From positions 1,302,001 to 1,366,000 of the forward strand of contig JAALGZ010000003.1 in assembly GCA_015227615.1 (NCBI GenBank): a stretch of 64,000 bases of DNA, given 5' to 3'. The position numbers and the translations under genes are program-made. This document shows positions 1 through 19,490 of this stretch, piece after piece. Source of the DNA: Labyrinthula sp. Ha. Taxonomy: Eukaryota; Sar; Bigyra; Labyrinthulida; Labyrinthulaceae. The notes under the pieces were generated by a model that saw only the letters and a list, made by a program, of their open reading frames with translations, made no database searches and had not been told where the DNA came from. The first letter of the stretch is position 1, and every line of letters starts with the position of its first letter.

Positions 1-3000
1 AACAGATAGTGGGAACTGTACGAAACATCTGGGCGGGAGATACCTGCAAAGTAGTTAATACTTCCTACTATTGATTGATACAGTTTTAGATCCGTAAGTT
101 TTCTTTCACCAATTTGACTTTAGTTCATTAGGAGATAATGGGGTTGATCTTTCTTTCATGTTTTCCAGTTTAAACTTTCTTGTAATCTTGTCAATTCTTT
201 CTTCTTGATTTATGGTTAACACGTTATCTTGTAACTTCTCAAACTTAAGTTCCACAAATATTTGAAGCTTTTCCATTGTTTTGAGTTTGAAGCTTTTATT
301 CATTTGTTTCTCAAATTCTTTTATTTCTTCAATTTGTCCTGAGTATAGTAAGTCATCCACATAAAGAAGAACTGACATAACTATTTTCCTTCCCTTCTTC
401 TTTATAAAAATACAGCTCTCGGTGAGTAATTTTTCAGTCAAAGTTGTTCAAACACTTTGGTAACTGTGTTGTACCATTTTCTGGGGTTTTCTTGAAGTCC
501 ATCTCTGCTTATGGTTATCATCCAAGCTTTCTTTCTTCCCTGTCTTTCTTTGTGACCCATCGGCAACTACAGAAACCCTCTTCTTGGTAGTTGATCGTAT
601 AAAAATGCAATAGTAACATCCAGTTGATGGATTCCTACTGGGAATGTTTGAGTGAGCATCGAGAATGTTCGTGTTTTTATTATAGACGTGACTTAGTAGT
701 GAACCACGGCGCTTCTCGATAAAATTATTTTACTATAATCTCCTCGAGCAACAATTCTGACTTTAGCTATATATATATTCACCTTGCATATTTGATCTCG
801 CTATGAACAGTTCTCTTATAGGTATAACAACTTCATCAGCTGAGCGCAAGACAACTTCAAAGTTTCCTACAGACTCTAGTACCAAGACTTCCTTATTGTA
901 TGCGTTTAACTACTGTGCTTTGTCAGACCGGTTTTGTATATGTCCATAGTTCTTCGGGGAAGTTGTTTCTTTGGCCACCGTAACTGAATACAAAACTTGG
1001 TTTCGTGTTCTGGGTTATGTTAAAATATTTCTTTTGCTTATATTATCATATACTACTGGATGGAACAGGGTCTGTTTTCTTCGTTTTCGATTTGAAATTT
1101 GCTTTTTTGTGTCCTGTCCTTCCCTGCTTCTGTATCATCATTCTCTTCTAATTTAACTACCTTTTCTGTTTCTGTATCACTTTCCGAGGACATGATATTT
1201 TCGGTCGATTCATTTCCTACTTTTTCATTTAAACGTTGAAAAACTTTATGAAACGATCGAGAGTTTTGAAGCAAGGTTCTTTCCTCATACAACGCTGTGT
1301 CTCTTATCTTGCTTAATCTTCTGTTGGATATAACATAAGCTAACATTATTTTTGATCTTGTGTCATAACCGAGGAAGATGGCTTTTTCATTTGCTTGGAA
1401 CTTGGATTTTCTAACTGATTTGACAAAACCCCTGGACCCGAATACAACAATCTTCTTCAGTTGTAGCTTGTTTTCAGTTATGAGCTCGTAAGCTGACTTT
1501 AGTTTGAGTCTCATTGTATAGTTTAGGATAAGTGTAGAATATAACGCGGCAAACGTCCAAAACTTCATGTTTAAGTTTGCCTGATGAAGTAACGCTTTTA
1601 GGCTGTGGAACACTGTGCGATTATACCTTTCAATTTTGCCCTTTTCACTTGGCATATAGTTTGAGGACATTTGCAGGTTTATTTCTTTGGAATATGCAAA
1701 CTTCTGCATCTTCATGAACTCACTTCCGTTGTCTGAAAAGAAACACTTAGCGTTTGTATTGTATCTTTTTTTAATTTTTAGGATCACGTTCTCAAGTTGT
1801 TTTGATATATTTTCTTTGGTTCTCGTATTTATCAGTATAATATAGTTTGTGAGCGAGTCTACTACTGTAACATTGTATTTGAAGCCACGTAAACTTGCTG
1901 GAAATGGACTCATGGTATCATAGTGTAACTTTTCAAACTTTTTTGGGAGGCAAAGAGGGTTGTGTTTTCAGTTGAAATACATGATCCTTTCTTTTTCTTC
2001 ACCAACCCTCCTACGCTGTACCCGATACAAAAACTATGTATACTAGTTTGCAAGTTATTCTTTCTCAGTATTTCATTAATTAGATGTACAAACCTAAAAT
2101 GGTTTAGGTCATTCCTGAATTCAGTTTCGTTTTCTATGCTTGCAGTTTCATTCATAGGTATCTCGACTGCCTGTTTTGGGGGTGAATTTTGATGTTCTAT
2201 GCAGAATGAAGTGACCTTGGTTTTGTTCAAGTTGAGCAATAACTCTTTCTTTTTGAGTAATGACAGATTCTTTCTGGGACTTATTAATAGCAAAACCTTG
2301 TTCAATTAATTTAGATTCGGAGATAAATATCTCTTTCTGAGGGGGAACTGTGATTACATCTTGAATTTGTAAGATAAAATTATTCTCAAGTAGGACATTC
2401 AATGTTCCAGTTACTTTGTTTCTCGATTTTGAAATCAATATAGTACTTACTTGCAAGTGTTTCTTAGTTCTTTCGTATTTTTTAATATATTCTTATCAAG
2501 TGTTTTGTGCTTAAAGGCTCATCCGTCTATGTTTATGTTTAAGCACCCGTTCTTGAATCTGCTGAATTGTCATTGTTTTGTTTTGTACTGACCTTCAAAA
2601 TCCTTTGAGCTATTTTATTTTTGTAGTATACAATAAAACCTCACTTATTCTGTTGTTAACATCGTCTTCATGGTTTTCAGTTGCACTTGATTCGTTCTCG
2701 TCTTCTTCCTGTATGTCAACTTTGTTAATTTTCAGAAGCTTGAACTTGCAGGCATTGTATTTATGGTCTGTGGATCCACATCCATAACATACTTCCTGTT
2801 TTGTTGGACACTGTGCTTTATAGTGACCCCATCCCGTACATCTCTTACATTTAATATTCTTCTGTTTTTTTCGACTTAAATTTATTTATTCTCACATCAT
2901 TGTCAAGCATAGTATTATTTTTTTCTTCGTAGTTATTGAACCTGAGCTCCATTTTGGCTTGAACTTTTGCAAAATATTTGATGGCATTATTTATATTATC

Positions 3001-3850
3001 TGCTGAGCACATAAACTTCATTGACGAGAACCTTTCATCAGGTATTTTTCTAATAAATCCTTCAACCAAACTTCTTGACGAATATCCTCCGTATATTTGA
3101 AACTGTGCAAATGTCTTTTTACATTTGTATAAGTAATGTTGCATGTTGCTAAACTTTACCTCTTCCAGTTTTTATTGGAATTTAACTAGTTGGTCATCTG
3201 AGCTTTTTTCAAAATGTGCATTCAAACTTTTATAACTTTGAAATGCATTTTTCTCTTCAGATATGTAGTGCATGAGAACCATAGTTACTGTGGCTCTTAA
3301 GATAGTTTTGACTTCTTCAGAGTTTGAGGCATATATCAGTTTAGCTACGATGTACTTCTTTCTATTTCGAAAAAACTGGAATACTTTCTTTTCACTTGTA
3401 CTTACAACTGTTGAACTAAGAGAAAGCTTTAGCAACAACATTGGAATATCAAAAGAGTCTGGTGTATAAACTTTGGTTCCTGATCTTTTAAATTCTTTAA
3501 TTTCTTTTCCTATTCGCTTCGTAATTTCTTCTACAGAAAACGGTTCATTTTCTGTATCTTTTGTTTTCGATAGAGGAGAAAGTGTTGGTTCTTTTATATA
3601 TGTTGGATTCCTAGCATTTCTCAGGACATAAACTTTTAAGTGTTTCTTTCCAAGGAATGATGCGATGGATTTCTTCCAATGGTGAAAAGAGGTTTCCTTT
3701 TCTCCTAGCTTTCATAAGTTTGTCGTTTTTATACTCTTGGTTTCCATTTGATATTTGGTTTGGTGTGTGTAGTAATACGCATTTAGGTGTGTACCGTCCT
3801 AAGAAAATATGATATTGTTTCAAGATAGGCTGTTAGCAGACAACATTTCT
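1..3850 (-). mobile_element. Broken Ty1/copia retrotransposon fossil A, cut by the window edge
   Basis: Pieces of a copia polyprotein lie in the expected order on the minus strand. A Gag-like segment lies at about 3441-2851. Two CCHC zinc knuckles lie at about 2870-2740. A GAG-pre-integrase/protease-side segment lies at 2456-1910. The integrase core is at 1913-1053, with the motifs SDNGSEF and EKGKIERYNRTV. A reverse transcriptase piece with YVDDLLYSG is at 441-106, and further RT sequence runs off the left edge. The Gag and knuckle region resembles the whole element at 6367-11390 (shared YGG, GFIRKIPDERF-like and CCHC patterns), so they belong to related families. The copy is broken in many places. 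No LTR pair can be seen because the 3' end is outside the window. It is clearly much older than the 6367 element. The right border is approximate. Confidence 0.85.
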
Positions 3851-4695
3851 CCTGGTGAGTTAAACTCTTTTCTCTTACAAACTCAGACTCAAGTTTACTT
3901 AAAGTTCTGTTTCAAATTTCCTTAAACCCTTTTGAATAGCTGCCTAGAAATCTGTTTCTTTAGTTCAGTAAAAATTGTCTCTTTAGGCTCATAACCTGTT
4001 GAGCGATACTTTATATTTATTTCCGTTTTTAATACTTAATGTCTGGTTGGTACCAGAATAAACCAATTACGCAATACTACCTTCAACAGTTTCCCTCTGC
4101 CCTGAAGAAATAAAATCTGTCAGGTGTTTTAGAACTTTAAATATGAGGAGTTGATAAAGAAGAATAAACTATGTTTTTCATAAATTCGTTTTAATAATTG
4201 TGCTATTTATTGATGCTCATGAGATACTTTGAGTATAGGTTTTGTCCAGATCCACCGAAAGTTCGATGTGACACTAGAACTGTTGAGAAAGCTAAGGCAT
4301 CACTTTGTTCACTTAAGCTTTTAAATTTTTCATTAAGCCAATGCTATCAACTTTAACATTCCCTATGCTGATAAGGAACACAGTAATTTTTGTCTAGTTC
4401 AGATGCTGCTAACACTGTGGTTGTCTCCTTATATTCAAGTGTATAAACCATTTCTTACTGTTTCATGCAAGAAGCTAAGTACAGTCTCATTAAATAAGCA
4501 GTGAGTAAGAAAATGTATTCTACAAAACTAGAGCTTGTGAGTTTAAATTTGTATATTGAATATCCAGCATCTAAGCATACTGTAAGTTTATAAAAATCAC
4601 ACTAGAAGCATTGGGAAAATATATTATTGTGGCAACAAGGTTGCATTACCGCAAATGGAATCTAAATTTCATGAAACAAAACACGTGCTGTCACG
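3851..4695. other. Gene-free spacer upstream of the MFS gene
   Basis: AT-rich spacer between the copia fossil and the transporter. It may hold the fossil's 5' LTR on the minus strand, but no second copy exists in the window to prove it. A CACGTG palindrome lies at 4682-4687, nine bases before the transporter's ATG. It is the only motif I noticed and its role is unknown. Confidence 0.4.
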
Positions 4696-6231
4696 ATGCT
4701 CAACACTTCGACAACACACTCCGGCAATAACAAAAACATCGACAATCAAGAAAGTAAAATGACTGAAACAGAAGGAACTACTGGGGTGGTTGAACAAAAT
4801 AAGCAACATAAACTCGTTGAACCTGAAGTAGGTGTTAAACAAGATGATCTTTCGTTAACCGCAGAGATCGAAGAGGAACTTAAAACTTATGCTTGTTGTG
4901 GACGCATTAAGCTAGCGAAGGGAGTTACATCAACTAATTTTTGGGGATTAATGTTCGTTGCATTTTCCACCATTGGATACTTGGTTTATCTCTCAGCCAT
5001 GCAAAGTTTTCTTCTTACTGCAGTCTACGATGTTGACACAGATAATCTAGGAAGAGTAACTGGAATACTTGGAGTAAGTGATGAAATTTGGTCTATAATA
5101 ACTTTGGGTTTTTGGGGTGCAGTCAGTGAGTATATTGGTAGAAGAAGTGTTGTAGTTGCTGGATTTGTTCATATTTTTATTGGTTGTCTTTTGATCCCAA
5201 ATGGAAATACTTTATATCCTGGATTACTCTTATCTAGATTAGTTTATGCTCAAGGTGCTTCTGCTTTGAGTAGTATGCTTTCAGCACTATTGGCAGATTA
5301 TATTGAAAAGTCAGATATGGGAAAAGCAACTGGAGTACTTGGATTATTTTCTGGATTTGGTGCACTATTTAGTGTATTTGTTTTAGTTACTGAACTTCCA
5401 CCAAATATTTGTATTGCAAATACATATTATGTAACTGGTTTAATAGCACTTGGATGTGCTATTTTCAGTTTTTTTTCTTTGCAGAAATTATCTGTTTTGA
5501 GAACAGAACAAAATATTCAAATTCCAGAAGAAAAAAATCCACTTATTCTTTTAATAGAAGGATATAAATTTGCAAGAAAAAATAGACATTTAGCTTTAGC
5601 TTATTTTGCTGGGTTTTTAGCAAGAGGTGATTCAATTGTAACTTCTGTTTTTGTACCTTTATGGGTGAATAAGTATTATGATGATAATGAACTTTGTTTT
5701 GAAGAAAATTCAACTGAATTTAGTACTTGTGATGAAAATCTTGCTAATGAAGATGAAGAAACTTGTCCAGATGCTTATACTTCGTTTAGAATAATATCTG
5801 GTGTTGCTCAAGTAGTTGCTTTAATTTGCACCCCTTTTTTTGGTATCTTTGCAGATAAAATATCTTCTGTGAATATGGTTATTTTTGTTGCTGCTTTAGG
5901 AGTTATAAGCTATTTTTTTTCTTTCTTTACTGAAGATCCAGATGCAGGTTTTTCTATTATAGTTGCTTGTTTATGGTATGTTTCTGGAAATGGTATGGTT
6001 ATTGCAGCACAAGTTCAGTTAGTTAAAAACTTAGGACCTGATTTAAGAGGTGTAGGTGCTGGTTTTTATTCATTAGTTGGCGCTTTAGGAGTTATGTTTT
6101 TTACATATGTTGGCGGATTAACTTTTGATTATTGGTTTAATACTGCACCTTTTGCGCTTGCTGGAATATTTAGTCTCTTAATTTGTATTGCAGGAATTTA
6201 TGTAAAAAAAAAAGATAGTGAAGAAGAATAA
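4696..6231 (+). CDS. Major facilitator superfamily transporter, 12 membrane segments
   Basis: A 511-residue integral membrane transporter, probably a proton- or gradient-driven solute carrier; the substrate cannot be read from the sequence. The first ~75 residues are hydrophilic and acidic (cytosolic). About twelve hydrophobic segments follow. The MFS signature between helices 2 and 3 is present (GFWGAVSEYIGRR, residues 138-150), and a related motif, FFGIFADKIS, lies before helix 9 in the second half. A loop at about residues 330-360 has four cysteines and many acidic residues, suggesting a disulfide-stabilised outer loop. The start is the first ATG of the open frame. The length is normal for the family and there is no intron. 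The gene ends 12 bp from the original stop of the convergent MenA-like gene. MFS membership is secure; the function is open. Confidence 0.85.
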   Translation: MLNTSTTHSGNNKNIDNQESKMTETEGTTGVVEQNKQHKLVEPEVGVKQDDLSLTAEIEEELKTYACCGRIKLAKGVTSTNFWGLMFVAFSTIGYLVYLSAMQSFLLTAVYDVDTDNLGRVTGILGVSDEIWSIITLGFWGAVSEYIGRRSVVVAGFVHIFIGCLLIPNGNTLYPGLLLSRLVYAQGASALSSMLSALLADYIEKSDMGKATGVLGLFSGFGALFSVFVLVTELPPNICIANTYYVTGLIALGCAIFSFFSLQKLSVLRTEQNIQIPEEKNPLILLIEGYKFARKNRHLALAYFAGFLARGDSIVTSVFVPLWVNKYYDDNELCFEENSTEFSTCDENLANEDEETCPDAYTSFRIISGVAQVVALICTPFFGIFADKISSVNMVIFVAALGVISYFFSFFTEDPDAGFSIIVACLWYVSGNGMVIAAQVQLVKNLGPDLRGVGAGFYSLVGALGVMFFTYVGGLTFDYWFNTAPFALAGIFSLLICIAGIYVKKKDSEEE

Positions 6232-6243
6232 GAACATTAAGCT

Positions 6244-6366
6244 TTAAAGGTATAATAAAAATAGTATAGTTAAAATAGAGTTTAAAATTATGAGTACAAT
6301 TAATTTTTCCAACTCTGTATTCAAAATTAGTGGATCTTTTGAAGAAACTTTTAATAAGTGAACTCC
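6244..6366 (-). pseudogene. menA: Displaced 3' end of the MenA-like gene, cut off by the copia insertion
   Basis: Read on the minus strand from the target-site copy at 6366, this stretch continues the frame of the MenA-like gene that stops abruptly at the element's far side (11391). It encodes about 40 residues: a short polar linker, then a hydrophobic helix (LEKLIVLIILNSILTILFLL), ending with TAA at 6246-6244. MenA-type proteins normally end in such a membrane helix. Counting one copy of the 5-bp duplication, the two host parts sum to 1101 nt, exactly 367 codons. This piece has no start and should not be translated on this allele unless the element is absent. Confidence 0.75.
6362..6366. repeat. 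Target site duplication, left copy (ACTCC)
   Basis: The five bases ACTCC lie immediately before the TG of the left LTR. The same five bases follow the CA of the right LTR at 11391-11395. A 5-bp duplication is the usual product of Ty1/copia integrase. Confidence 0.92.
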
Positions 6367-6489
6367 TGTTAAATAATATAAATATATTTATGGTAGTTGC
6401 TTTTTATAAGTAGTCGTTGCAAATAGTACATTGGTACTAAAGCAGACTTTAATTGGTTAATTGGTTTTTAAATATAAAACTGTTCAACA
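6367..6489 (+). repeat. 5' LTR of the copia element
   Basis: 123 bp, TGTT...AACA ends, AT-rich with a TATAAATATATTTA stretch near its start. It matches the copy at 11268-11390 base for base as far as I can read. Confidence 0.95.
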
Positions 6490-6513
6490 GGTTAAGAGCC
6501 TAACCTCTGCTAC
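6490..6513 (+). other. Probable primer-binding site, complementary to a tRNA-Lys(CUU) anticodon arm
   Basis: The bases directly after the left LTR begin GGTTAAGAGCCTAACC. Their complement contains TTAGG-CTCTTAA-CC, which has the form of an anticodon stem, a seven-base loop with anticodon CUU (lysine) and the start of the 3' stem. Further upstream it gives a partly matching D-arm sequence (GTAG...AG). Drosophila copia is primed by the 5' half of initiator tRNA, cut near base 39. The end of the match here falls at about base 40, so priming by a half-tRNA-Lys is a reasonable inference. The matching tRNA gene is not in the window. Confidence 0.55.
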
Positions 6514-6834
6514 TGATCCTATCTTTCTCGATTCACTTAAGTTTAGATTCTAAGAAGGTCTAGAAGAAAAAGACAAACTTCAAGAGAAAAACTACTTGAG
6601 TTCCTCAATATTCAGGTTAAGAAAGAAAAGAATTTATTTAACAAGTTGTCTTACTTCACAACTTGTACTTTTTCTTGAAAGACTGGTATCAACCAAAAGT
6701 TATAAATATTACAACATCACCTTATCTATATTCACGGATACCATATACAATACCACATTACTACGCAAACAAATACCGTACCAAAACAAATCAAAAACGA
6801 CAAAATAAGAAAACAAATTATAAAGTTAAAGACT

Positions 6835-9800
6835 ATGAACATTGGCAAAGAATCCAACAAATTTCCTAAGCTCGGAACCCCAAGAGTTCCATTTAGAGAC
6901 TGGGAAACAACTATTCTTGCATATCTTGGCAAAAAACACCTATCCATGTTCCTACAATATGAAATTACATCACCTAGACTGTTAAAAGAAGATTCCTCCG
7001 CTAGAGAAGGTCTCCAACAATATCTTAAAGAAATTAACAACGAAGAATTCTACGATGTAAAGAAAGTTAAAGTATATAACGATGAATCCATGGATACGCC
7101 TCTGGAACTTATGAACCTTTCTATGACAGCATCTGTAGTTGTATTGGATAAATTAGTTGTACCTTGCTACTATGATAAGAAAGTGTTTCTTAAGGATAAA
7201 ATGGAGCTAGCTTCGAAACAACTTGAGGTTATTCACACTCTAAGAAGATCTATGACTATAGAATTGGTTCACTACATTGACAATGGACCTACAATATTTC
7301 ATGGAATGATGCAAATTCGGATTCACTATATGAAGGACAAAGATACAGCTAGAATACAAGCAAAACGAAGACTTCAAAATATTCAATATCGGGATCTTAC
7401 TTCTTACATTAATATTTTTCGAAAAAGATTCTCTGAATACTGTCTATATGGAGGCCAAGAATCTAAAGATATTGCTGAAGACTTCATCCAAGGACTTCCT
7501 GATGATAGGTTCTATGTGCACAAATCCATGTGCAATGAGACCACGCTTGCAGGGACCATAAGTTTCTTCCTCAAAGTAAACGCCAACATTACTCTCCGAT
7601 GTCCTGAGCAAAAATCCAGATCCAACAACGTGAAAGTTAAAGTGGCCAATGTCCAAAACAATAAGTTTTCCTCTACCTCTACCAATCCCACAAGAAAGAA
7701 GATTTTCAAAGCAAAAAACAGATGCTTGAAATGTGGGGGTTTCGGCCACTACATAAAAATGTGTCCAAATAAAGAACACGTCTGCTTCTTGTGCGGATCC
7801 GGTTCTCACACATACAAAAACTGCACGATCCAAGTTATTAGAGTAAATACGGTCGATATTTTAGAAGATGAATACGCGTCAGAGGATGAAACGAGCCAAA
7901 ACGAGGAATGTAACGCAGAAGAAAACCAAGTAGAAGAAGAGTATGAACTGAATGAGTATCCGACGGACGTTGACTACTCTCTCATGACCCTAAACATTCA
8001 ACTGAAAGATGTATCTGTCTCAAAAGAAAAATGTACCCACAGGTTCAATGAACAGTGCTTATGCTGCCTAGTTGATTCTGGAGCAACGCAACACGTCACA
8101 GGAAATCGAAATCTTTTATCGAATCCTAAAGACATCTCTAACGTCAAAGTATCTGGAGCACTTCACACCAGAAACATCAACACTGTCCAAGGATCTTTGA
8201 AGCTACTTCTTAAAAACAACACAGCTATACATCTAAAAAACGTTGTGTACATACCTGGAATCAAACAAACCATTATCTCCGAACCTCAGCTGGTGGATGA
8301 CAACTTTGCTATTATTAAAGACAAGAAAGGAGCCAGAATAACAAAACATGATCTTACAGTTGCACACCTACACAGAAAAAACAACCATTATATTCTTCAT
8401 TGTATCAAAAATCCAAACAACAGAATTGCGTTGAACGAACTTAACGTATCCTCTTCTGATCTCTCCCACTACAGACTTGGTCATCTAAATAAAGAATACA
8501 TAAAAAGAAACGGATACCCTGAGATGAAACAAGATTTCTGCATTGGATGCTCAGCTGGAAAACTGGTTCAAAGTCGCAAACACAAAGCAGTTCAATACTC
8601 TAACAGCTCTCTCATGAAAGGAACGTATCCTTTTGAAAAGTTACACACAGATACTATGGGCCCGTTCCCCTTATCCTTCCAAAATTTCATCTGGATCAAC
8701 CTTTCAGTCTGCAACTACACTGGATATCTCATACCTATACTTACAAGAAAGAAAGATACAATATCAAACGAGCTGATAAAATGCATAAAAAAGCTTCAAA
8801 AACAATATGACAAACCTGTGAAGTGTATTTTCTCTGACAACGGAACTGAATTTAAAAACCTGGATCACTTCTGTTTAAAATCTGGAATAAAGCGGGAGTA
8901 TTCGAACGCATATCAACCTTCTGAAAATGGACGTATTGAAAGACAGAACAGAACTGTCGTATCCATGATGAGGGCCCTCTTATTCCAATCCAACTTATCC
9001 GAACGTTTTTGGTGCTTTGCAGCCAAACACTCCTGCTACATCCTCAAGCGAATATCAAAACAACTATCAAAGTCACCCTTCGAAATAATCTATAACATCC
9101 CTCCAAAGCTAGAGAACATAAAGTTATTTGGCGCAAAAGGCTTCGCACTCAAACCGAGGAAATCCAAACTATCAACTACGACTCCCATCATCTACTTAGG
9201 AAATGACGTCCAATCCAAAGCATATATCACACTCAACTTGAAGACCAACAAAATTCAACTATTTCGAACCATCCAACTCGACGAGATCGGCACCATACGT
9301 GCAACATACAATGAATTCATATCACTCTCACCAAAAGACTTAAAAAACAACATCCACAAAGACCGTATGAGAAAACTGATCAACAAAAACCTCCCACATC
9401 TTCAGATACAACAACCAGAGTACTACGAATTGTCAGATAACAGCTCCGATACGTCCGAATCTCCATCAATCGAGGAAATCAAACCAAACAGTTGTGTTTC
9501 ATCTCCAATTCAATTTAATTCTAAGGTGTCTCAAAAGGATCAAAATTTGGGCAATTCTACAAAGTGGGTGAATTCTGAAATTAGCACAGATAACATCATT
9601 CAAGGATGCAGAAATAGGAATCACACAGTTAAAAAATTAGGAGTAAAATCAGCCAATAAAATCAAAAGAAATCAAAATTCAGATGAAGAAGAGGTTTATT
9701 CATCCAATAAAATCACGAATAGCACAATACCACCGAGAACCTATTCACAAATACAATACAGAAACGACAAACAATACTGGTTAGAAGCATATGAGAAAGA

Positions 9801-11277
9801 ACTCAAAGCTCTCGAAGAAACAGGGATTTTTAAGGTCGTTGACAGACCAGAGCCTCCTAATAGGGTGATACCTATTGTTGAGCTGTTCAAAGTGAAAAAG
9901 GATTTCTATGGAAATATGATCGCAAAAGTCAGGATCTGTGCGAACGACAACAAGGCTAGAAGTCAGTTCAAGAAAAGAGATACAAGATTTTACGCTCCTG
10001 TTGCTCCAATAACTACAATAAGAATATTTCTATGTATTGCAATTGGATTTAAGATGTGGATTAGACAGATGGACATCACAGCTGCCTTCATCTATGGATC
10101 TCTTCCAAACGATATATTTTTAGAGCTTCCAAGAGGTCACCCAAAAAGAGACGGCAACAAAAAAGTATGGAAATCTTCAACATCAATATATGGACTCCGC
10201 CAAGCCCCGAAGATTTGGTATGAAACTTTGAGAAACACATTAGAGACGTTAAATTTAAAACCGGTGGTTGGAGAAAGCTGTCTGTTTTCTGACGGGGAAA
10301 GGAAAGAAATAGTCGTTTTAGTGTATGTGGACGATCTTTTATACTCTGGAACAGAGTTTAGAGTATCTGAATTCGAAGATCTTATGAAGAAAAGCTACAA
10401 GCTGAAGAGTAACGAAGTGGCTGACACGTATATTGGAATACGTCTTACCAAAGGTGCGAAAAATAGCTGTATTTGCAACATGTCTTCTCACATAGTAAAC
10501 GGATTCTACAAACACAAGCTCAACTTAGAACAAGTTCAAACTGCTCCTACTCCGATCAACACAGATCTTACGTCCGATGATACTCCTAAACTATCTGAAG
10601 AAAAAGAATATCAGCAAATGGTTGGATTAGCTAACTATATAGCTATAAACGGAAGACCAGACATATCTTTTGCTGTTCAAACTCTAGCTACTTCTATGTC
10701 TTGTCCAACTGAGCTGGGCCTTACGCAGGTAAAACGTTTATTTACGTATCTTAAAAATACGAAAGAATACAGTTTAGTTTATCGAAAACTGAAGGAAGTG
10801 AACACGCTGAATATGATGGTGGATAGTTCTCATGCTAATGGAAAAGAAGAAAAGACTGTATATGGAAACATCATTACGTTAAATAATAATGTTATCTCAT
10901 ATCGAAGCAAATTGGAACCTATTTACACTCGAAATTCTACGATAGCTGAGTTTATTGGAATTAGTTTATCTGTGAAGGAACTTAAAGCAATATATGAAAC
11001 TCTTAAGAACTTGAAGATAAAAGTTGCTACAAGAATATTTATTGATAATCAGGGAGCACTTCGTATGTGCAAAGGTGAATCTGCTCAACATGCTGTGAAG
11101 CATATTAGTTCAAAGTATAAATGTGCAAGTCAAGAAATTAAGGAAATGAATGCTGAACTTATTTACGTTCAGACTGCAGAAAATTTAGCTGACCCCTTTA
11201 CTAAACTTGTTGGTAAGAACAAACTGTTCAACTTATGTGAAAAAGTATTTCAAATGAAGGGGAAAGGTGTTAAATAA
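6835..11277 (+). CDS. Copia Gag-Pol polyprotein (1480 aa)
   Basis: One unbroken frame encodes all retrotransposon proteins. Gag occupies about residues 1-340. It ends in two CCHC knuckles (CLKCGGFGHYIKMC at 297-310; CFLCGSGSHTYKNC at 317-330). The aspartic protease has VDSGA with Asp414. The integrase has its zinc-binding His/Cys region from His545 (HYRLGHL ... CIGC), then catalytic Asp606 (HTDTMGPF), Asp668 (FSDNGTEF) and Glu702 (NGRIERQNR). The reverse transcriptase has YVDDLLYSG with Asp1166/1167. RNase H begins near Asp1330 (VDSSHANG). Gag and Pol are fused without a frameshift site, as in many copia elements. The last residues are encoded by the polypurine tract, and the stop codon lies inside the right LTR. 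Confidence 0.95.
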   Translation: MNIGKESNKFPKLGTPRVPFRDWETTILAYLGKKHLSMFLQYEITSPRLLKEDSSAREGLQQYLKEINNEEFYDVKKVKVYNDESMDTPLELMNLSMTASVVVLDKLVVPCYYDKKVFLKDKMELASKQLEVIHTLRRSMTIELVHYIDNGPTIFHGMMQIRIHYMKDKDTARIQAKRRLQNIQYRDLTSYINIFRKRFSEYCLYGGQESKDIAEDFIQGLPDDRFYVHKSMCNETTLAGTISFFLKVNANITLRCPEQKSRSNNVKVKVANVQNNKFSSTSTNPTRKKIFKAKNRCLKCGGFGHYIKMCPNKEHVCFLCGSGSHTYKNCTIQVIRVNTVDILEDEYASEDETSQNEECNAEENQVEEEYELNEYPTDVDYSLMTLNIQLKDVSVSKEKCTHRFNEQCLCCLVDSGATQHVTGNRNLLSNPKDISNVKVSGALHTRNINTVQGSLKLLLKNNTAIHLKNVVYIPGIKQTIISEPQLVDDNFAIIKDKKGARITKHDLTVAHLHRKNNHYILHCIKNPNNRIALNELNVSSSDLSHYRLGHLNKEYIKRNGYPEMKQDFCIGCSAGKLVQSRKHKAVQYSNSSLMKGTYPFEKLHTDTMGPFPLSFQNFIWINLSVCNYTGYLIPILTRKKDTISNELIKCIKKLQKQYDKPVKCIFSDNGTEFKNLDHFCLKSGIKREYSNAYQPSENGRIERQNRTVVSMMRALLFQSNLSERFWCFAAKHSCYILKRISKQLSKSPFEIIYNIPPKLENIKLFGAKGFALKPRKSKLSTTTPIIYLGNDVQSKAYITLNLKTNKIQLFRTIQLDEIGTIRATYNEFISLSPKDLKNNIHKDRMRKLINKNLPHLQIQQPEYYELSDNSSDTSESPSIEEIKPNSCVSSPIQFNSKVSQKDQNLGNSTKWVNSEISTDNIIQGCRNRNHTVKKLGVKSANKIKRNQNSDEEEVYSSNKITNSTIPPRTYSQIQYRNDKQYWLEAYEKELKALEETGIFKVVDRPEPPNRVIPIVELFKVKKDFYGNMIAKVRICANDNKARSQFKKRDTRFYAPVAPITTIRIFLCIAIGFKMWIRQMDITAAFIYGSLPNDIFLELPRGHPKRDGNKKVWKSSTSIYGLRQAPKIWYETLRNTLETLNLKPVVGESCLFSDGERKEIVVLVYVDDLLYSGTEFRVSEFEDLMKKSYKLKSNEVADTYIGIRLTKGAKNSCICNMSSHIVNGFYKHKLNLEQVQTAPTPINTDLTSDDTPKLSEEKEYQQMVGLANYIAINGRPDISFAVQTLATSMSCPTELGLTQVKRLFTYLKNTKEYSLVYRKLKEVNTLNMMVDSSHANGKEEKTVYGNIITLNNNVISYRSKLEPIYTRNSTIAEFIGISLSVKELKAIYETLKNLKIKVATRIFIDNQGALRMCKGESAQHAVKHISSKYKCASQEIKEMNAELIYVQTAENLADPFTKLVGKNKLFNLCEKVFQMKGKGVK
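11256..11267 (+). other. Polypurine tract
   Basis: Twelve purines (GAAGGGGAAAGG) directly before the right LTR, the usual primer for plus-strand DNA synthesis. The tract is also coding: it supplies the Lys-Gly-Lys-Gly end of the polyprotein. Confidence 0.85.
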
Positions 11278-11390
11278 TATAAATATATTTATGGTAGTTG
11301 CTTTTTATAAGTAGTCGTTGCAAATAGTACATTGGTACTAAAGCAGACTTTAATTGGTTAATTGGTTTTTAAATATAAAACTGTTCAACA
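11268..11390 (+). repeat. 3' LTR of the copia element
   Basis: 123 bp, identical in my reading to the left LTR. Its first ten bases hold the last codons and stop (TAA, 11275-11277) of the polyprotein. On the other strand it supplies the last codons and the stop of the interrupted MenA-like frame. Confidence 0.95.
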
Positions 11391-12373
11391 ACTCCATACA
11401 AAAAACATTTTCCTATATAGAGAAAAATAACATTTTGATTTGTAAAAATACTTTTAAAATGAAGAAAATCAAAAACCAGGGAGCCAAACATAAGTCCTCC
11501 GTGGTAATACACTGCATTTTCTTGTCCTAAATATACTACAATAGTATTTTTTCCAACTTTTTTATCTGGGAAATAATCTCTTATATTATTAACGTTTAAA
11601 ACACCAACAACCAAAAGACCATAATAAACGGATAAATAAATAGTAGAGGAAGAAGGGAAAGAAAGAGAAAGAAGAGAAAAAGAACCAGAGACTCCAACAA
11701 GACCAAAGAAAACAAATACAGCTAAGTCACCTAAACCAATATATCCATATGGTTTTAAGTTTACTTTACCAACAGAAAATCCAATGGTATAGTATATAGC
11801 AGAGAAAATTGAGGCAATTCCAAGACTTGTAAAGATCAGCAGTAACTGAAAGTTTTCGTTGTTGAAGAGATTCGTTAAGTAGAGCAAGAGCAGGCCAAAA
11901 AGAAGGCTGGAGGATGTGAAGAAGTAAATGGATTTTACAGCTTCTACTTTTGTCATAGTTTGTCTTTGCAGAAAAGATGCATCTTTTCCTACTTTGATAA
12001 TTTTGTTCTGTTCATCTGCACCAGAAATGAAGTCACCAAAGTCGTTGCAAATATTACATAGCAGCTGAAGAGAAATAGCAGTAAGAGAAGAGAGAATCAT
12101 GATTGGTGGATTAAACAGTTTAGTTTGATGATAGAATTGTGCGTTGCCAAGAAGAATAGAGAAAAGAGCGAGAACAGAGGTTTCAACCCTAGAAGCTTTC
12201 AACGATTTCACCAAAAAATTCATCCTCCCTTCTTGGCTAAAACTGGAACACAGTAATGCCAAACTGCTATTAAGAGGAATATTATATACTACGCAAAATA
12301 GGCATAAAGTTTGAGAAAGGCAAATGCAAGGGGGTCCTTTGAAAATAAAAACAAACTTAAGGAAATTATTCAT
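11369..12373 (-). CDS. menA: MenA-like 1,4-dihydroxy-2-naphthoate prenyltransferase, 3' end interrupted by a copia insertion
   Basis: UbiA-superfamily membrane enzyme that would attach an isoprenoid or phytyl chain to dihydroxynaphthoate in vitamin K (phylloquinone/menaquinone) synthesis. Both Asp-rich prenyl-diphosphate sites are present: NDFGDFISGADE, and NNIRDYFPDKKVGKNT with the MenA-like GKNTxxVxLG ending. Several hydrophobic helices lie between them. The present frame has 334 codons. The last few (after Gly-Val) come from the inserted LTR, which supplies the stop. Without the element the frame runs on to 6244, giving 366 aa. About 50 residues precede the usual family start at Met51, possibly a targeting leader. 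The form resembles bacterial MenA more than animal UBIAD1. The truncated protein lacks only its last helix, so loss of function is likely but not certain. Confidence 0.8.
   Translation of the reverse strand: MNNFLKFVFIFKGPPCICLSQTLCLFCVVYNIPLNSSLALLCSSFSQEGRMNFLVKSLKASRVETSVLALFSILLGNAQFYHQTKLFNPPIMILSSLTAISLQLLCNICNDFGDFISGADEQNKIIKVGKDASFLQRQTMTKVEAVKSIYFFTSSSLLFGLLLLYLTNLFNNENFQLLLIFTSLGIASIFSAIYYTIGFSVGKVNLKPYGYIGLGDLAVFVFFGLVGVSGSFSLLSLSFPSSSTIYLSVYYGLLVVGVLNVNNIRDYFPDKKVGKNTIVVYLGQENAVYYHGGLMFGSLVFDFLHFKSIFTNQNVIFLYIGKCFLYGVVEQFYI
11391..11395. repeat. Target site duplication, right copy (ACTCC)
   Basis: Matches 6362-6366 and lies within the MenA-like reading frame (tyrosine-glycine-valine codons). 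Confidence 0.92.
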
Positions 12374-13728
12374 ATTCTTCTGAAATTTTATATATTTAAA
12401 AGGTAGTTCAACAATTTAAATCAACTAGCTTGTGTATATAAGTCCTGTCTATGGTCAGAGAAAGGAGTAAGAAAGCCTGTAGACATGGAACGTTTCAACG
12501 ATTAAGAATTAACGGGAGCTCCGTGACTTATGGTGTATCGATATGGGGGTTTAAGTTTATGGATATTTATATATAAGTAGTTTTGAAAATATGATTAGTT
12601 AGAATAGAGGAATCTGATTGGATAGATTAGATTTTAAGGGAATTCCGTGGCCGTGCCAATTGAGTCCGAGGACCTAATCCTCAGGAGCCTGCGGCATTGC
12701 CCATACTCTCTACAGTAAAACTATTATTATAATTATGTTACTTTCATTATCACGTGTTCCTGAGTGGCAGGATCCCTCTTGTTCCAATAACATCTTGAAT
12801 CTTATGCTTAATTTCCCAAAATGTAATCCAAAAATTAAAGAAAACAACAATCCAAGTCGTGGTGTCGATTAGACTCCGGCCCAGACGTTGTAGTGATCTA
12901 ATTTTAGTTTGGTGCAGCTCCAGGTGGTTTTTGAGGTTTAGTTAGATGTTCCCAGCGATGTTTGACCAAGGTTTACATTTCTAGCTATGTACTTCTCTCT
13001 TGACGTGCTTCTATCTACATCCAACCTCTAGAAGGCCGATTATGAACCTCACGGAGTATTTCTATGTTGTTTATTGATCTTTAAGCTACTTAGTCTTATC
13101 TGGCAGATACTTTTTGTTGAGTTTTTGACGCAGTTTGACCAAGATTTCATGATCCAGACGGTTTCTACTTTTCCTATATTGCATCTAGGTTCAAGAAGAT
13201 GATATATTCTTAAGTTGTGGTGATTCCAGGTTCCAAGTTAGTGTTGAAGTAGCTTCTCTTTCTACTATTATGTTTTGGTTTTTTCTTCTAAGTGCCTGGT
13301 GCTTTTCTTTGGCGTGTAGATAATTCCAAGCCAGTCCAGCGTGTTTCAAGTTAGTAGGGAGCATGCAGCTCTTATCCTGGGCGCTGTGAGTGGGCGGGTG
13401 AGAGGTTCACAGACCTGTTTACTAGGCTATGTTCAGGTTTTTGTGAAGTTGAAGTTGCAGGTTCATGGTGAGAAGGCACCGGTTCGCCATTTGTTACAGA
13501 TATTCTGCGACCATGTTTTACAGCAGTGCCTGTTCCAGAGATATTCTTTCATTGAGATTTATGGTGTTCCAGATTCCAAGACAGTTTTTTCACATGTTGC
13601 GTCCAGTTGAGCATCCACAGTTTCTTGTTCACTGAAGACCTGGACTCTTTGTCCTACAAGTTCACAGATGTTTATATCTCCATCCTGCAAGTTGAAGGTC
13701 ATACTCTCCAGGTTATCTATTTTCTTTT

Positions 13729-14103
13729 TTATATTTTTTGAAAGTTCGTTGAGTCTCTTCTTGATGGTGACGGTGACGTTCCAGTTCTGGCAGTTATATA
13801 ATAGAGGTAAGAGTGGTAGTGACAAGACGATCCTCGTTCAGTTTTTTTGTTCCAGATGGTTGATTTTAGAAGGTAGCTTAGTTGGTTCAGGTCTTTTTCT
13901 GCCTTTTTTATCTTGTCCGAGACTGCTTCTTCATCCAGCTCCGAAGTGTTAAGGGCTGCTCCCAGATATTTCATCTTGGTTGTTCCCTGTATTGTTTGGC
14001 CATTTACTTCGATATTTGGAAATTTCTTCTTGAGTAAACTGGTCAATATATCTTGTGTGTGAAACTGCAAGGGTTTTTGTTCTTGGACGGTTATTTGTCC
14101 CAT
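13729..14103 (-). pseudogene. LINE post-RT (thumb) region
   Basis: A short frame containing VNGQTIQGTTKMKYLGAAL, matching the conserved segment after the RT palm where LINEs have a K-YLG-x-L motif. An amphipathic helical stretch rich in Asp, Glu and Lys follows (DEEAVSDKIKKAEKDLNQL). The frame overlaps the preceding RT piece in a different phase, so at least one frameshift separates them. Confidence 0.6.
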
Positions 14104-14407
14104 CGCAGTATCTAGAAGCGCGGTAACAGCTCAAGGATCTTTCAGTTTGGAAAAAGCGGTCGCATCTTTCACAATGAAACTTCCACAGAAATCTATTGAT
14201 CAAAGCGTCCGGTATTTTTTCTTGTATTTTAGGTACTTTCTCCATGTACATGACCTTCATTTGGTTGATATTTATTCCCAGACCAGTGCTGTGTTCAAGT
14301 TTTGCAAGCTGTTGGACAAGATCTGTAACTTGAGAGTCATCTTTAACAAATGCAACTACATCATCTGTGAAAGCCATGAGTTGTACTTGGTCAGTTCCTA
14401 GGTTCAC
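13949..14407 (-). pseudogene. LINE reverse transcriptase, catalytic palm piece with a zinc-finger-like insert
   Basis: Contains the RT active-site box as MAFTDDVV (usual F/YADD; Ala is Thr here), followed by helix residues and GLGININQMKVMYME, the normal next RT motif. A cysteine-rich segment then follows: FHCERCDRFFQTERSLSCYR...C. It looks like a C2HC finger whose His has become Tyr. A finger at this place, before the K-YLG motif, is unusual. The frame then runs out and the protein continues in another phase (14103-13729). Confidence 0.6.
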
Positions 14408-14559
14408 TTTTTCACATGTATTATCTTTTAGATGTATTAAGCTGTCCAGTGCTAGAATAAAAAAGTTTATGATAATCTATCAACCTGCATGACGTCATTT
14501 AGAATTCTTGTTTTGTTCGTTTATTTTTCTCCTTCAACTACTTTGACTTTTGTTAAACT

Positions 14560-14976
14560 CTAGAGGTACATAATCTTTCTTATTAATGATTTAGGTACTC
14601 CATGTTCCCTAAGCGAAAGGCGGAAAAAACTGTGTGAAACTGAGTCGAAGGCTTTCTTGAAGTTAATAAAAAGCATCTTGAGTTCAAGATTCTTCGTTAC
14701 ACTTTTCGCAATTATTCGTTTAAGTATTGCAATCTTGTGGGTTGTTGCACGATATTTACGAAAACCTGCTTGATATGAAAATATTTTTTCAACTGCGTTT
14801 TCTAACCGGCTATTGATGATTTTCGTTAACACTTTGAAAGATGTTTGGAGCAACGTTATTGGCCTGTATGATGAAGGGTTCTGTTTCTCACCTTTGCCTT
14901 TGTACAAGAATATTACTTTGCCTTGAGAAGATGCTGCTTCTTCATTCTCTTTAAGTTTCCCTTCTCTAAAAATCAT
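14560..14976 (-). pseudogene. LINE reverse transcriptase, fingers and palm
   Basis: Typical non-LTR RT sequence in one piece of 138 residues: a KGKGEKQNPSSYRPITLL motif (RT motif 1), LENAVEKIFSYQAGFRKYRATTHKI (motif 2), then LKMLFINFKKAFDSVSH, the motif that carries the first catalytic Asp; the usual 'DFxKAFD' reads 'NFKKAFD', so that first Asp is Asn here. It ends just before the expected PxGxxxSP motif. The 14408-14559 gap between it and the next piece is decayed. Confidence 0.8.
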
Positions 14977-15494
14977 CGGATGATTCTTATTAGGTGTTCT
15001 TGAAACTGGTTAGAATATTTGAGAACTTCATTTACAACTCCATCATCTCAACTAGCTTTGTTGTTCTTGATTGATTTTAGGTTGTTCATAATTTCTTCTT
15101 TACATGTAACGTTGCATGAAACTGTGGAGCAGGTTTGAGAATTTAGGTTGAGTTGTCTGTGGTAATGTTGTATTTCTTCTGCAGTTATGTCCTCTGGTCG
15201 TTGAGTTGGATGTTTTTGGGTCTCACGAATATGTTACCACAATATTTTCAGTATCTTTTAAACAGATATGGCATTACCTTATCCGTCTTTAGTTATTCTC
15301 CCGAAGTTGCTTTTCTTCTTCTGGAACATTCTCATTATTCTATAGGCTTGACGAGAGTTATTGGTATTGAAGTTTGTGTCAATTGCTGTGCAGATCTCGT
15401 CCAAGTACACGTTCCTGTCTGCAACTGCAGCGTTCCTGACTTCTCTGGACATCCTCTTCCTTTCCTCCTTCGATGCTGTGCTCCACCTTTGTCG

Positions 15495-15773
15495 TTATAG
15501 TTTGATGAGTTCAAAAGTGCCTGGAGAGTTCTTTCGATGAAAGCCTTTACGTTTCTTAGACGTAATCAGTTCTTCTACTACTTCCCTTATTGCCTTTGTG
15601 AGTTGAATGTAATCCATCTCTTCGGTTTCAAGTTCAGTATCTTGAAATTTACGTCGGAGGGATTCGTCAAACTGCTTGCTGTACATTTTTAGATAGGTTG
15701 ATAGGTCTTTTTCTGTGTTGTCATTAGGTTTGGTGTTGTGGGGTGTGAGGTTGATGGAGATTTGTATTCCCAT
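15495..15773 (-). pseudogene. LINE linker between endonuclease and reverse transcriptase
   Basis: A helical, charged frame (YLKMYSKQFDESLRRKFQD ... YIQLTKAIREVVEELITSKKRK) of the type found between the two enzymatic domains of LINE ORF2. It is placed by position and composition. No catalytic motif is expected here. Confidence 0.45.
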
Positions 15774-16155
15774 GTGGTCTTTTAGTTCATGTTGCCAAAT
15801 GCCTTTGCTGATCTTTCTATTTACTTTAAAGGGTATGATCGCTGTGGGTTTGTTGGTGATGAAGATATTTATTTCTGATGGTTTTATATGCTTATTCCAT
15901 GATCTGAAGGTTGCATGTCTTCTGGATCCTTTCTTCCCTGTCCTGTGCCTGTGATTTATGATTTCAATTGTATTCTAGAGCAAGAACTCTTGTATCATCT
16001 TTCTGTTCCTGATGATTCTTGAGGACAGTTTGTATTTGTTTGTGGCATCACTCCATGTTCTTTTGACCTGATCGTTCCAACCACCTCCAACAACTATTAA
16101 CCTCCTCTTCTTCACTCTTTTCATTACGTTTACTTGTAACGTGTTTAAGAATTTT

Positions 16156-16701
16156 TCATAATCCCGGGTGGTTAGTACACTGTGGGGTGCCTACACGTTT
16201 ACTAAAATAAGCTTGTTTGTTTTTACTTGACATGATCTTAATCGCTAGGATTCTGCCGCTCACTCTGTAGGTGTCAGTTACATCCAGAAGGAGTTCCTGA
16301 TACACAAAGATCGCTACGCCAGTGGAATTGGAGTCGGCTTGTGAGACAAACCATCTTTCTTTTCCGTTCTGGCTAGCGCTTTTGTTCGCTTTCTCAAGTT
16401 TTTCAACACCGTTCTGTTCAAATTCTTGGGGCAAGATCAGTAGGGACCGAAGTTCGTAACTGAGTTTTACTATTGTAGAGAGTTTGTATTGAGCAAGACC
16501 ACCAACGTTGAGTGAAAGTACTTGGACGTTCACTTTTCGTCGGCTGGTGAAGTTTGGGATCTCCTGGAGGTGCTGAGCTGACGTAGGCTCAGTTTCAGAA
16601 GCAACTTGTGTCATTTCTTCTCTACCCAAAAATTTTCTGGTTGGATGGTATATTATGGCAAGAATAGTCATAGCAGCGAGAAACCAACAGAAATGAAACA
16701 T
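16156..16701 (-). pseudogene. LINE endonuclease N-terminal part (exonuclease-endonuclease-phosphatase fold)
   Basis: After a hydrophobic, unrelated leader, the frame contains VNVQVLSLNVGGLAQYKLS, matching the first strand and conserved Asn of APE-like LINE endonucleases. Next come LRSLLILPQEF, the region of the catalytic Glu, and a later GVAIFVYQELL strand, as in the family. The rest of the domain, toward 15.8 kb, is broken. Confidence 0.6.
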
Positions 16702-18118
16702 ATTGGGCTTGAGAAAACAACGTCAAGGATGAAGAAAAAGTGCAATGTTTTCAGAGTGGCGACCTTTCTACTCCTTCGAAAGAGACCTCAGGGACAACGA
16801 GCCGAACCAAACACTCACCCAAGTGGGTGTGTGTGAACTTTTGTGGTCTAACTGCCGTTAAATACGGCTACGTACAACAACTTAAAATTACAGCGAATGG
16901 TGAACGTCAGTCCGGCTTCAGGAAGGTGGTTTTCAAAACTGCCTGAAAAAGTGGCGGGCGTAGCGACTTTGCTGTGTAATGGACTCGCTAGTCGAGTCAT
17001 GAACACAGACGGAAGAAGCGTCAGGATCCTGAAACTGGTTGTCTGGAAAATGGTGTTGTACACAAATTGGCCGGAATGAAAATACAGAAAACTATTATTG
17101 ATTAGGAAAGAAACGACAATTAACAAGGTAACCATAGAAAATACAGAGAAACGCTGCTTGTGCAAAAAAACGAGACTTGCCAGAGGATACAGGTCGTTCA
17201 ACATCAAATCCAGAAATGCCAGCAACAAACCAAGGGAGTAACCAAAATCCAAACAGGACAGAAAAAAGAACACCAGACAGCAACACCATGAAACCAACAG
17301 ACCACATAGTTCAAGAAAAGCTCCAGAGAAAAGGTCAAGGAACGATGCCAGAGCTAGAACACTGAAAAGAAAATGAAATGCTCCTTCAAATCCGTAGAAC
17401 CACCATCAAATTAAATGCTCAAACTTTTCAGAGAACTCAAAAAGACAGCAGCAGAATATAACACAGCTTCTTCCAAGCGTCTCCCCAACAAAGCCAAGAT
17501 TGGACCACAAATTCCTACCTTCAACAGAGCTCCTCAAAACGTCAGATTTCACTCAAAAAACAGAACAATATCACTGCAGTAGACACCAAGACCACGACAA
17601 AGCAAGGAATACATAGTAGAAAAAACCGATGATGCAGAACAATCTGATCAAGCTTTTTCTCCCTCGATTTGCACAATTTTCTCAACTTTTGTTTCTGCAT
17701 TTTGCGTAATTTAGCAACGACCAAATCCAGGCAACCAAGTTCAAGGATCCTGACGTTCTACCAATATAATTACAAACAATATTGAAAGCTAACAGTAGAA
17801 TCAATAACGAACAGTTAGGAGAGATTAATACATATAGTACGTAGCTCTTATTGGTAGTTAGATCCCCGCCGTAGGGTTAGTCCAGTAAGCCCAATTAACT
17901 CCCTTAAAACCTAGACTTAACAGAAATCAGAACAAGAATAAAAGAGACTTACAAAAGAAGAAGAATAAGACTCTAAGTAGACAGAACCAGTAGAACCTTA
18001 ACATAATAAGCTAGGAGACTTTAAATACACGTGTTGAACCTAATCAGTCCGAAGTTTTTAGTACCGTACTGATCCAGTGTAATTTCAAGACAAAAAGGTT
18101 AAGAAATTTAAAGCAAGT

Positions 18119-18405: not shown

Positions 18406-19490
18406 ATGATTGAAAATAATAAGTGGTATGAAAATTCTGTAGCTTTCGATAAAGTCAAAACTCTTCAGAGGTTGTTTGGTGAGCTAAATTACCTGAGTAC
18501 AATTTCAAAACCTAAAATTAGTTACTCAGTTAACAGAATTGGAAAAAAACTTCATGATGGCACTAAAGAGATTTACATAAGAGCAAAGTCAATTCTTTTT
18601 TGCTCTTGTGATTCAAGTGACTTGAGTTTCATGTTGAAATTTTTCTCAGGTGCTTCAAAGTTGGAGCTTTATTGTGTTGCTAGTCTTGCTGATGATAAAC
18701 TTGAGAAATTTAATACTGGAGGTTTTCTAATCTTTTTGAATGGCGGATTGATTCATTGAAAATCTAAGAAAATCAAGATGGTTTGTACTTCAACGCCACA
18801 AAATGGGTTTCTGTCATTTTACACTGGTGTAAAGGAAGTCTTGTTTGTTGAAAGGGTGGTTCATGATCTGTTTGGAATAAGCGTTTGGCCGATTAAAGTT
18901 TACGTTGACAATCAAGCTGTTCTTAATGTTCTTGAACGTGCAGCTCCAAGTGATATGAATAAGCACATGGCAACGAAGTATTACGCGCTTCAAGAATGGG
19001 TTCATGAAGGATTATTGGAGCTTGATTATGTGGTTTCGAAGTTGAACTTATCAGATATTTTGACCAAGGTAAGTGGGATCTTCGTTCCTATGAGAAATCA
19101 ACTTCTTCATCCAAGGGGAGTGTTGGAAACTAACACATACGTTAGTTTTCTGATTTTCCATATATCATTTTTTTGTATATTTTGGGTATAGTCTCAGCTG
19201 GTTCAGCTTGGCACTTTAGTTAATTCTTGTGGAGATCTTCACCTAGAAGTTGTTTTTGTTTGATTTGTGTTTCGTCCTGCCCGGTAGCCATCTTAGCATA
19301 TAGTTTTTGTGGAACTTTTTTCTTGCCTTAGTGTGCAATTTGTGTTGCTATAAGAACTTCGAGTTGATACAGGTAGCAGAATAGCTTCTGTTGTTACTTG
19401 TGACTACAGTTAGGGTTTGTGAAACTGGTTACTCTGTCTGATAGGTTTCCGACTATGAATGCATCTGACAGAAGCATCACTTCAGCCATG
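18406..19490 (+). mobile_element. Broken Ty1/copia fossil C (3' end of RT, RNase H, start of 3' LTR)
   Basis: Two plus-strand pieces cover the end of copia reverse transcriptase (LQRLFGELNYLSTISKPKISYSVNR) and RNase H (KVYVDNQAVLNVLE ... MATKYYALQEWVHEGLLELDYV, ending LSDILTK). A purine run AAGGGGAG at 19113-19120 is followed by TGTTGGAAAC at 19121, the expected polypurine-tract/LTR junction. An 8-bp inverted repeat (AAACTAAC/GTTAGTTT) lies just inside. The far end of the LTR is uncertain. The sequence differs clearly from the 6367 element, so it is another copia family. It is broken and 5'-truncated. Confidence 0.8.

What the first reader, a model, noticed from the sequence alone, without database searches (positions are those of the whole stretch)
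6244..12373. Fresh copia insertion splits a MenA-like gene; the host frame is continuous across the empty site
The element has identical LTRs and the target duplication ACTCC. On the minus strand, the MenA-like frame left of the insertion and the stretch on the other side (6366-6244) fit together: one copy of ACTCC plus both parts gives exactly 367 codons, ending in a hydrophobic helix as expected for this family. The gene would then have met the MFS gene tail-to-tail 12 bp apart. Vitamin K quinone synthesis could be lost on this allele, or the truncated protein may still work. In a diploid or mixed culture the other allele may be empty.
Basis: partly seen in the sequence, partly recalled or inferred. 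Interest (0 to 1): 0.8.

Follow-up and report, generated by a model that had tools for sequence, protein, structure and literature searches.

The report
Young copia insertion truncating a MenA-like gene
A recent retrotransposon insertion has cut the last membrane helix off the one intact-looking MenA-type prenyltransferase gene found in this eukaryote's assembly, and a decayed second copy of the locus in the same genome still shows the uninterrupted arrangement; it is a well-supported but ordinary kind of gene disruption.

Summary
A 5,024-bp copia-type element (6367-11390; identical 123-bp LTRs; target duplication ACTCC) interrupts a UbiA/MenA-family gene. Joined flanks give 366 aa plus stop, ending 12 bp from the convergent MFS stop. 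Two independent lines support 6244-6366 as the true C-terminus: all 118 homologues examined have 38-63 residues beyond the junction, the joined protein 39; and a decayed duplicate of the MFS-MenA block aligns across the insertion point without the element. Profile scores of the tail itself are weak or mixed. The element is young: three LTR-bounded copies of equal length, each with its own TSD, differ by 3-7 of 1561 bp. The allele now encodes 328 native residues plus six from the LTR, keeping both aspartate motifs but losing the end of helix 8 and helix 9. 'Vitamin K synthesis lost' needs correction: no MenB, MenD, MenE, isochorismate synthase or MqnC match reaches its cut-off, so this was more likely a lone UBIAD1-like prenyltransferase. 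No empty second allele was found in the assembly; reads are not held.

The parts
4696..6231 (+). MFS transporter gene, convergent with MenA (stop 6229-6231)
   Evidence: PF07690 110.6 bits on 4699-6228; single place in the assembly; decayed copy of its 3' part on C66
6244..6366 (-). Detached 3' end of the MenA-like gene (residues 328-366 and stop), including the left TSD copy
   Evidence: Joined frame; homologue tail length; DNA alignment to the C66 duplicate; shuffle control
6362..6366 (.). Target-site duplication ACTCC, left copy
6367..6489 (+). 5' LTR, 123 bp, TG...CA
6835..11277 (+). Single gag-pol frame of the copia-type element (integrase before reverse transcriptase); its stop lies within the first 10 bp of the 3' LTR
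   Evidence: On 6832-11274: RVT_2 120.2 bits and Pol_BBD 49.2 above gathering; rve, gag_pre-integrs and SH3_retrovirus found below gathering
11268..11390 (+). 3' LTR, identical to the 5' LTR; supplies the last residues and the stop of the truncated MenA frame
   Evidence: public model P0001 ends VVEQFYI
11391..11395 (.). Target-site duplication ACTCC, right copy
11369..12373 (-). Interrupted MenA-like gene as it now reads: 334 aa (328 native + VEQFYI from the LTR)
   Evidence: TIGR00751 menA 150.8 bits, cut-off 102.15; only TIGR00751 match in the assembly

Best explanation
A Ty1/copia-type retrotransposon integrated recently, through a 5-bp staggered cut at ACTCC, into the 3' end of a bacterial-type MenA/UbiA prenyltransferase gene of a eukaryote; it is the only intact-looking MenA gene found in the assembly. 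Shown: LTRs, TSD, the frame across the empty site, homologue C-termini of matching length, an element-free decayed duplicate, low divergence among three element copies. Shown for this assembly: the frame now runs into the LTR and stops after six foreign residues. Inferred from homologues and a model: this removes the end of TM8 and TM9. Inferred: the product is inactive or impaired, because TM9 walls the substrate tunnel in a solved UbiA protein. Inferred: before the insertion the enzyme prenylated an acquired naphthoquinone, as UBIAD1 does, because the upstream men genes tested were not found above cut-off.
For: Identical LTRs and TSD. 366-aa joined frame. Best NCBIfam match NF004750 rises from 178.4 bits (to profile position 254 of 301) to 184.2 (to 295) with the tail, though its cut-off of 346 is not reached either way. 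118 of 118 homologues examined carry 38-63 residues where the joined protein has 39. C66 duplicate: MFS part 70% identical over 545 columns, MenA part 67% over 522, no match to the element; the stretch 6232-6366 aligns to it with score 60, reached by 2 of 500 shuffles; anchored extension into the right flank scores 32 (0 of 200 shuffles, maximum 29), into the LTR 5 (144 of 200). Two other copies of the same length (5,024 bp from the LTR places) with TSDs GTAAA and CTTAG; 3, 6 and 7 mismatches of 1561 bp between copies. Structure model of the truncated protein has eight long helices in the homologous part, the last at 313-326; best fold match UBIAD1 8djk. TM9 forms a wall of the tunnel and its removal exposes the cavity (PMC4106721, passages).
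Against: The tail's own profile signal is weak: 7 of 2000 shuffled tails do as well; TIGR00751 gains only 0.1 bit, and of 10 NCBIfam models matching both versions 6 score lower with the tail. The LTRs are only 123 bp, so zero differences dates the insertion poorly. Codon-position mismatches between this locus and the decayed copy are flat (MenA 0.276/0.256/0.267), so that comparison gives no sign of purifying selection. No reads, so heterozygosity is open. The model is low in confidence past residue 300 (block means 62-72). Impairment is not measured; helices 1-7, most of 8 and both catalytic motifs remain.
Confidence: 0.93

Rival explanations
1. The 6244-6366 continuation is chance: the gene naturally ended near the insertion, or the open frame is an accident of AT-rich DNA.
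For: An in-phase tail of at least 38 aa arises in 191 of 5000 shuffles; the tail-only profile is beaten or tied by 7 of 2000 shuffled tails; 6 of 10 NCBIfam models score lower with the tail.
Against: 0 of 5000 shuffles match both length and hydrophobicity; 118 of 118 homologues examined have a tail of this length; the C66 duplicate aligns across the junction.
Confidence: 0.02
2. The truncated, LTR-capped protein still works (eight-helix enzyme), so the insertion is nearly neutral.
For: Both aspartate-rich motifs lie upstream and are intact (N110, D111, D114 and N263, R265, D266, D270 invariant in 40 aligned rows); UbiA proteins are typically predicted to have eight or nine helices, and TM9 has no counterpart in soluble prenyl synthases (PMC4106721, passages).
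Against: TM9 forms one wall of the tunnel; 118 of 118 homologues examined keep the C-terminal region; the public gene model of this locus carries AED 1.00 and zero quality-index fields, while a neighbour, P0125, has AED 0.09, which by recall of MAKER means no transcript or protein support.
Confidence: 0.15
3. The locus was already a dispensable relic being lost, and the insertion merely landed in it.
For: A duplicate of the block is decayed on C66; no upstream men gene above cut-off; flat codon-position pattern.
Against: Apart from the insertion the 366-codon frame has no stop or frameshift, and 38 columns are identical in this protein and all 39 homologues aligned.
Confidence: 0.3

Closest known systems
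Ty1/copia LTR retrotransposons
   Same: Integrase before RVT_2 reverse transcriptase in one frame, TG...CA LTRs, 5-bp TSD
   Different: Short LTRs (123 bp); only three LTR-bounded copies and no further LTR match at E 0.001 in this assembly
Bacterial MenA (1,4-dihydroxy-2-naphthoate polyprenyltransferase; TIGR00751)
   Same: Above the TIGR00751 cut-off; 34-42% identical to the 39 homologues aligned, the named hits being Bacteroidota; catalytic motifs kept
   Different: In a eukaryotic contig, without MenB/D/E/F or MqnC above cut-off; long branch (2.83) in the tree, so donor not fixed; now truncated
UBIAD1 (eukaryotic MK-4 synthase)
   Same: Lone MenA-family enzyme in a genome without the upstream pathway; best PDB match by profile and by fold
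   Different: Sequence closer to bacterial MenA: a single-sequence search of the PDB did not list UBIAD1 at E up to 1

Membership tests
Ty1/copia retrotransposon | Identical or near-identical LTRs with TG...CA ends and 5-bp TSD | tested here: met
   two further copies with own TSDs
Ty1/copia retrotransposon | Integrase ahead of an RVT_2-type reverse transcriptase | tested here: met
   gag_pre-integrs 520-577, rve 600-696, RVT_2 999-1241 of the frame; rve and gag_pre-integrs score below gathering
Ty1/copia retrotransposon | Protease and RNase H domains | tested here: inconclusive
   not detected as separate Pfam matches
MenA (TIGR00751) | Score above the curated cut-off | tested here: met
   150.9 bits joined, 150.8 truncated, cut-off 102.15; the finer models such as NF004750 are not reached (184.2 of 346)
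MenA (TIGR00751) | Both aspartate-rich motifs | tested here: met
   N107, N110, D111, D114, D120 and N262, N263, R265, D266, D270 invariant in 40 rows including this one
MenA (TIGR00751) | Complete C-terminus with last transmembrane helix, as the locus stands | tested here: not met
   lost on this allele; present only across the element
MenA (TIGR00751) | Accepts 1,4-dihydroxy-2-naphthoate | not testable with these tools
   no assay; enzymes making it not found above cut-off
UBIAD1 | Closest relatives are eukaryotic UBIAD1 proteins | tested here: not met
   of the 120 proteins listed (of 1631 hits), apart from its own model P0001 none carries a eukaryotic source or name; those named with an organism are Bacteroidota, many have no name

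The most novel reading that the evidence does not exclude
A eukaryote acquired a lone bacterial-type MenA that took the place of UBIAD1 (no other MenA/UBIAD1-type gene found), duplicated it with its MFS neighbour, and is now caught losing it: one copy decayed, the other freshly cut by a copia element whose LTR supplies a new C-terminus.
Probability: 0.3. Interest if true: 0.5.

Novelty: new member of a known kind. Interest (0 to 1): 0.27.

Why it matters
It is a clean example of a recent retrotransposon knocking the end off a gene, with the empty site preserved in a decayed duplicate of the same genome. If the lone-MenA reading holds, comparing strains could show directly whether a eukaryote without a de novo pathway needs a MenA-type prenyltransferase.

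Tried and rejected
Second allele with an empty site: both flanks searched in the whole assembly; each has only its own full-length place. Solo LTRs: the six LTR matches are the ends of three copies.

C66 match (L008) as an intact paralogue: rejected. It has in-frame stops, gaps and no long open frame.

The other two insertions as gene disruptions: the longest frame across either empty site is 104 aa, not identified.

Men-pathway candidates: the isochorismate-synthase-like match on C110 was read by eye as a glutamine-amidotransferase / chorismate-enzyme fusion of the folate type, not scanned against families. The best MenD match is an oxalyl-CoA decarboxylase-like protein and the best MenB match an enoyl-CoA hydratase-like one; the other 14 MenB, 1 MenD and the C99 isochorismate matches were not examined. 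Of 28 MenE candidates 10 were scored; the 12 matches listed (best 168.7 of 330.15 bits) were not examined one by one.

Codon-position test against the duplicate: flat, so uninformative or against constraint. MFS homologues: only four proteins, one of them the window's own, the rest 44-47% identical, no organism named. Organism: a 3-oxoacid CoA-transferase search gave 58-67% matches (120 listed of 7995) spread over dictyostelids, a labyrinthulid, heteroloboseans, oomycetes, chytrids, animals and others, so not identified. Tree of 118 homologues plus the joined protein: long branch, donor unresolved. Searches use 118 of the 119 listed non-self proteins; one shorter than 280 aa (P0095) was dropped. 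and the structure model use 39 of them. Rfam and tRNA scans of the window: nothing.

Full report
What is there. The window is G000:C77:1302001-1366000, part of a 50.84-Mb assembly in 153 contigs; that it is a eukaryote is an inference from its size and gene content. A 5,024-bp element lies at 6367-11390 with identical 123-bp LTRs and the duplication ACTCC. It carries one frame with integrase (weak match) before an RVT_2 reverse transcriptase, the copia order, and a purine-rich stretch just before the 3' LTR (sequence). On the minus strand to its right is a UbiA/MenA gene (TIGR00751 150.8 bits against a cut-off of 102.15). To its left is an MFS gene on the plus strand.

The empty site. Joining the flanks with one ACTCC gives 366 aa and a stop, 12 bp from the MFS stop. 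The upstream ATG may not be the real start: the public gene model P0001 begins at Met51 and the homologues listed are mostly near 300 aa.

Is the tail real? Tests for: (1) of 5000 shuffles 191 give an in-phase tail of at least 38 aa, 0 with the same hydrophobicity. (2) All 118 homologues examined have 38-63 residues past the junction column, median 40, against 39 here. (3) A decayed copy of the MFS-MenA pair on contig C66: 70% identity over the MFS end, 67% over MenA, no match to the element. The stretch 6232-6366 aligns to it with score 60 (2 of 500 shuffles reach it). The alignment continues across the junction into the right flank; anchored extension scores 32 for the right flank (0 of 200 shuffles as high, maximum 29) and 5 for the LTR (144 of 200). 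That copy is a pseudogene with in-frame stops, and a repeat of about 310 bp lies between its two parts, but it keeps the arrangement without the copia element. Tests that help little or go against: a profile of the tail alone is matched by 7 of 2000 shuffled tails, though by none of the other frames or MFS pieces. Of 10 NCBIfam models matching both versions, 4 score higher with the tail (best NF004750, 178.4 to 184.2) and 6 lower.

Age. Six LTR matches form three copies of equal length, with TSDs ACTCC, GTAAA and CTTAG. LTR pairs differ by 0, 0 and 1 base. Over 1561 bp of the RT region the copies differ by 3, 6 and 7 bases. 'Fresh' is fair; the copy-to-copy figure is a better measure than the 123-bp LTRs.

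Effect on the protein. The frame now gives 328 native residues and VEQFYI from the LTR, losing 38 residues. P0001, evidently a model from the same assembly (scaffold_3 gene 13.31, which fits 1.31 Mb on C77), ends in the same LTR letters. Its AED of 1.00 and zero quality-index fields, against 0.09 for its neighbour P0125, suggest no transcript or protein support; the meaning of these MAKER fields is recalled. A structure model of the truncated protein (mean pLDDT 80.7, lower past residue 300) ends in a helix at 313-326 that corresponds to TM8. UBIAD1 8djk and archaeal UbiA structures are the best fold matches, at modest TM-scores of about 0.5. In the AfUbiA paper (PMC4106721, passages read) TM9 forms a wall of the substrate tunnel and its removal exposes the cavity, while helices 1-8 form the two bundles. 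Impairment is likely, total loss not proven.

Vitamin K. No match to MenB (best 90.7 of 342.7 bits), MenD (33.3 of 244.2), isochorismate synthase (67.7 of 224.75), MenE (168.7 of 330.15; 10 of 28 candidates scored) or MqnC (none) reaches its cut-off. The cut-offs were set for bacterial proteins, the searches are exon by exon, and plastid DNA was not tested. PMC6189191 (passages) says heterotrophic eukaryotes not derived from Archaeplastida lack the men genes except UBIAD1. Besides this locus the UbiA matches are a COQ2-like gene, a COX10-like gene (two exon matches) and a homogentisate phytyltransferase-like protein, named by best NCBIfam match, each below its cut-off. So this was a lone MenA-type gene, closer to Bacteroidota MenA than to UBIAD1, and probably prenylated an acquired naphthoquinone. 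That function is inference.

Against this reading. The codon-position mismatches with the decayed copy are flat for MenA (0.276, 0.256, 0.267) and nearly so for MFS (0.277, 0.224, 0.229), which gives no sign of selection on either gene. The tree places the protein on a very long branch (2.83), so a bacterial donor is not established. The organism is not identified.

Verdict. The finding is real, correctly read in structure, and ordinary in kind: a young copia insertion truncating a gene. Literature searches were seen as listings only, apart from passages of two papers; I make no claim that this case is unpublished.

Noticed in passing
L020 (G000:C66:2582000-2591900), about 4440-6540: Decayed duplicate of the MFS-MenA convergent pair; mismatches to the intact locus are about equally frequent at all codon positions, which is odd if the intact copies were under constraint.
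   Followed up: partly
L033 1351-3192 (minus), G000:C78: 613-aa frame whose C-terminal half matches homogentisate phytyltransferase (NF009525, 210.5 bits, just under the cut-off of 226); the N-terminal half has no Pfam match and by eye recalls a phytol/dolichol kinase, a possible fusion in tocopherol synthesis.
   Followed up: no
window 12533-12728: Two adjacent repeat units (about 90 and 110 bp); 38 other places in the assembly match this stretch at 76-92% (40 of 45 candidates scored for the whole flank query, so a lower bound); no Rfam match; SINE- or MITE-like.
   Followed up: partly
window 106-3711 (minus): By eye a broken, older copia-like element, its frames interrupted by stops, close to the young one.
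   Followed up: no
window 13949-16722 (minus): Fragments that look by eye like a decayed non-LTR retrotransposon (reverse transcriptase and endonuclease pieces).
   Followed up: no
window 19215-19523: About 310 bp 68% similar, inverted, to a stretch inside the C66 pseudogene block (L020 5201-5512), apparently a dispersed repeat that landed in the decayed MenA copy.
   Followed up: no
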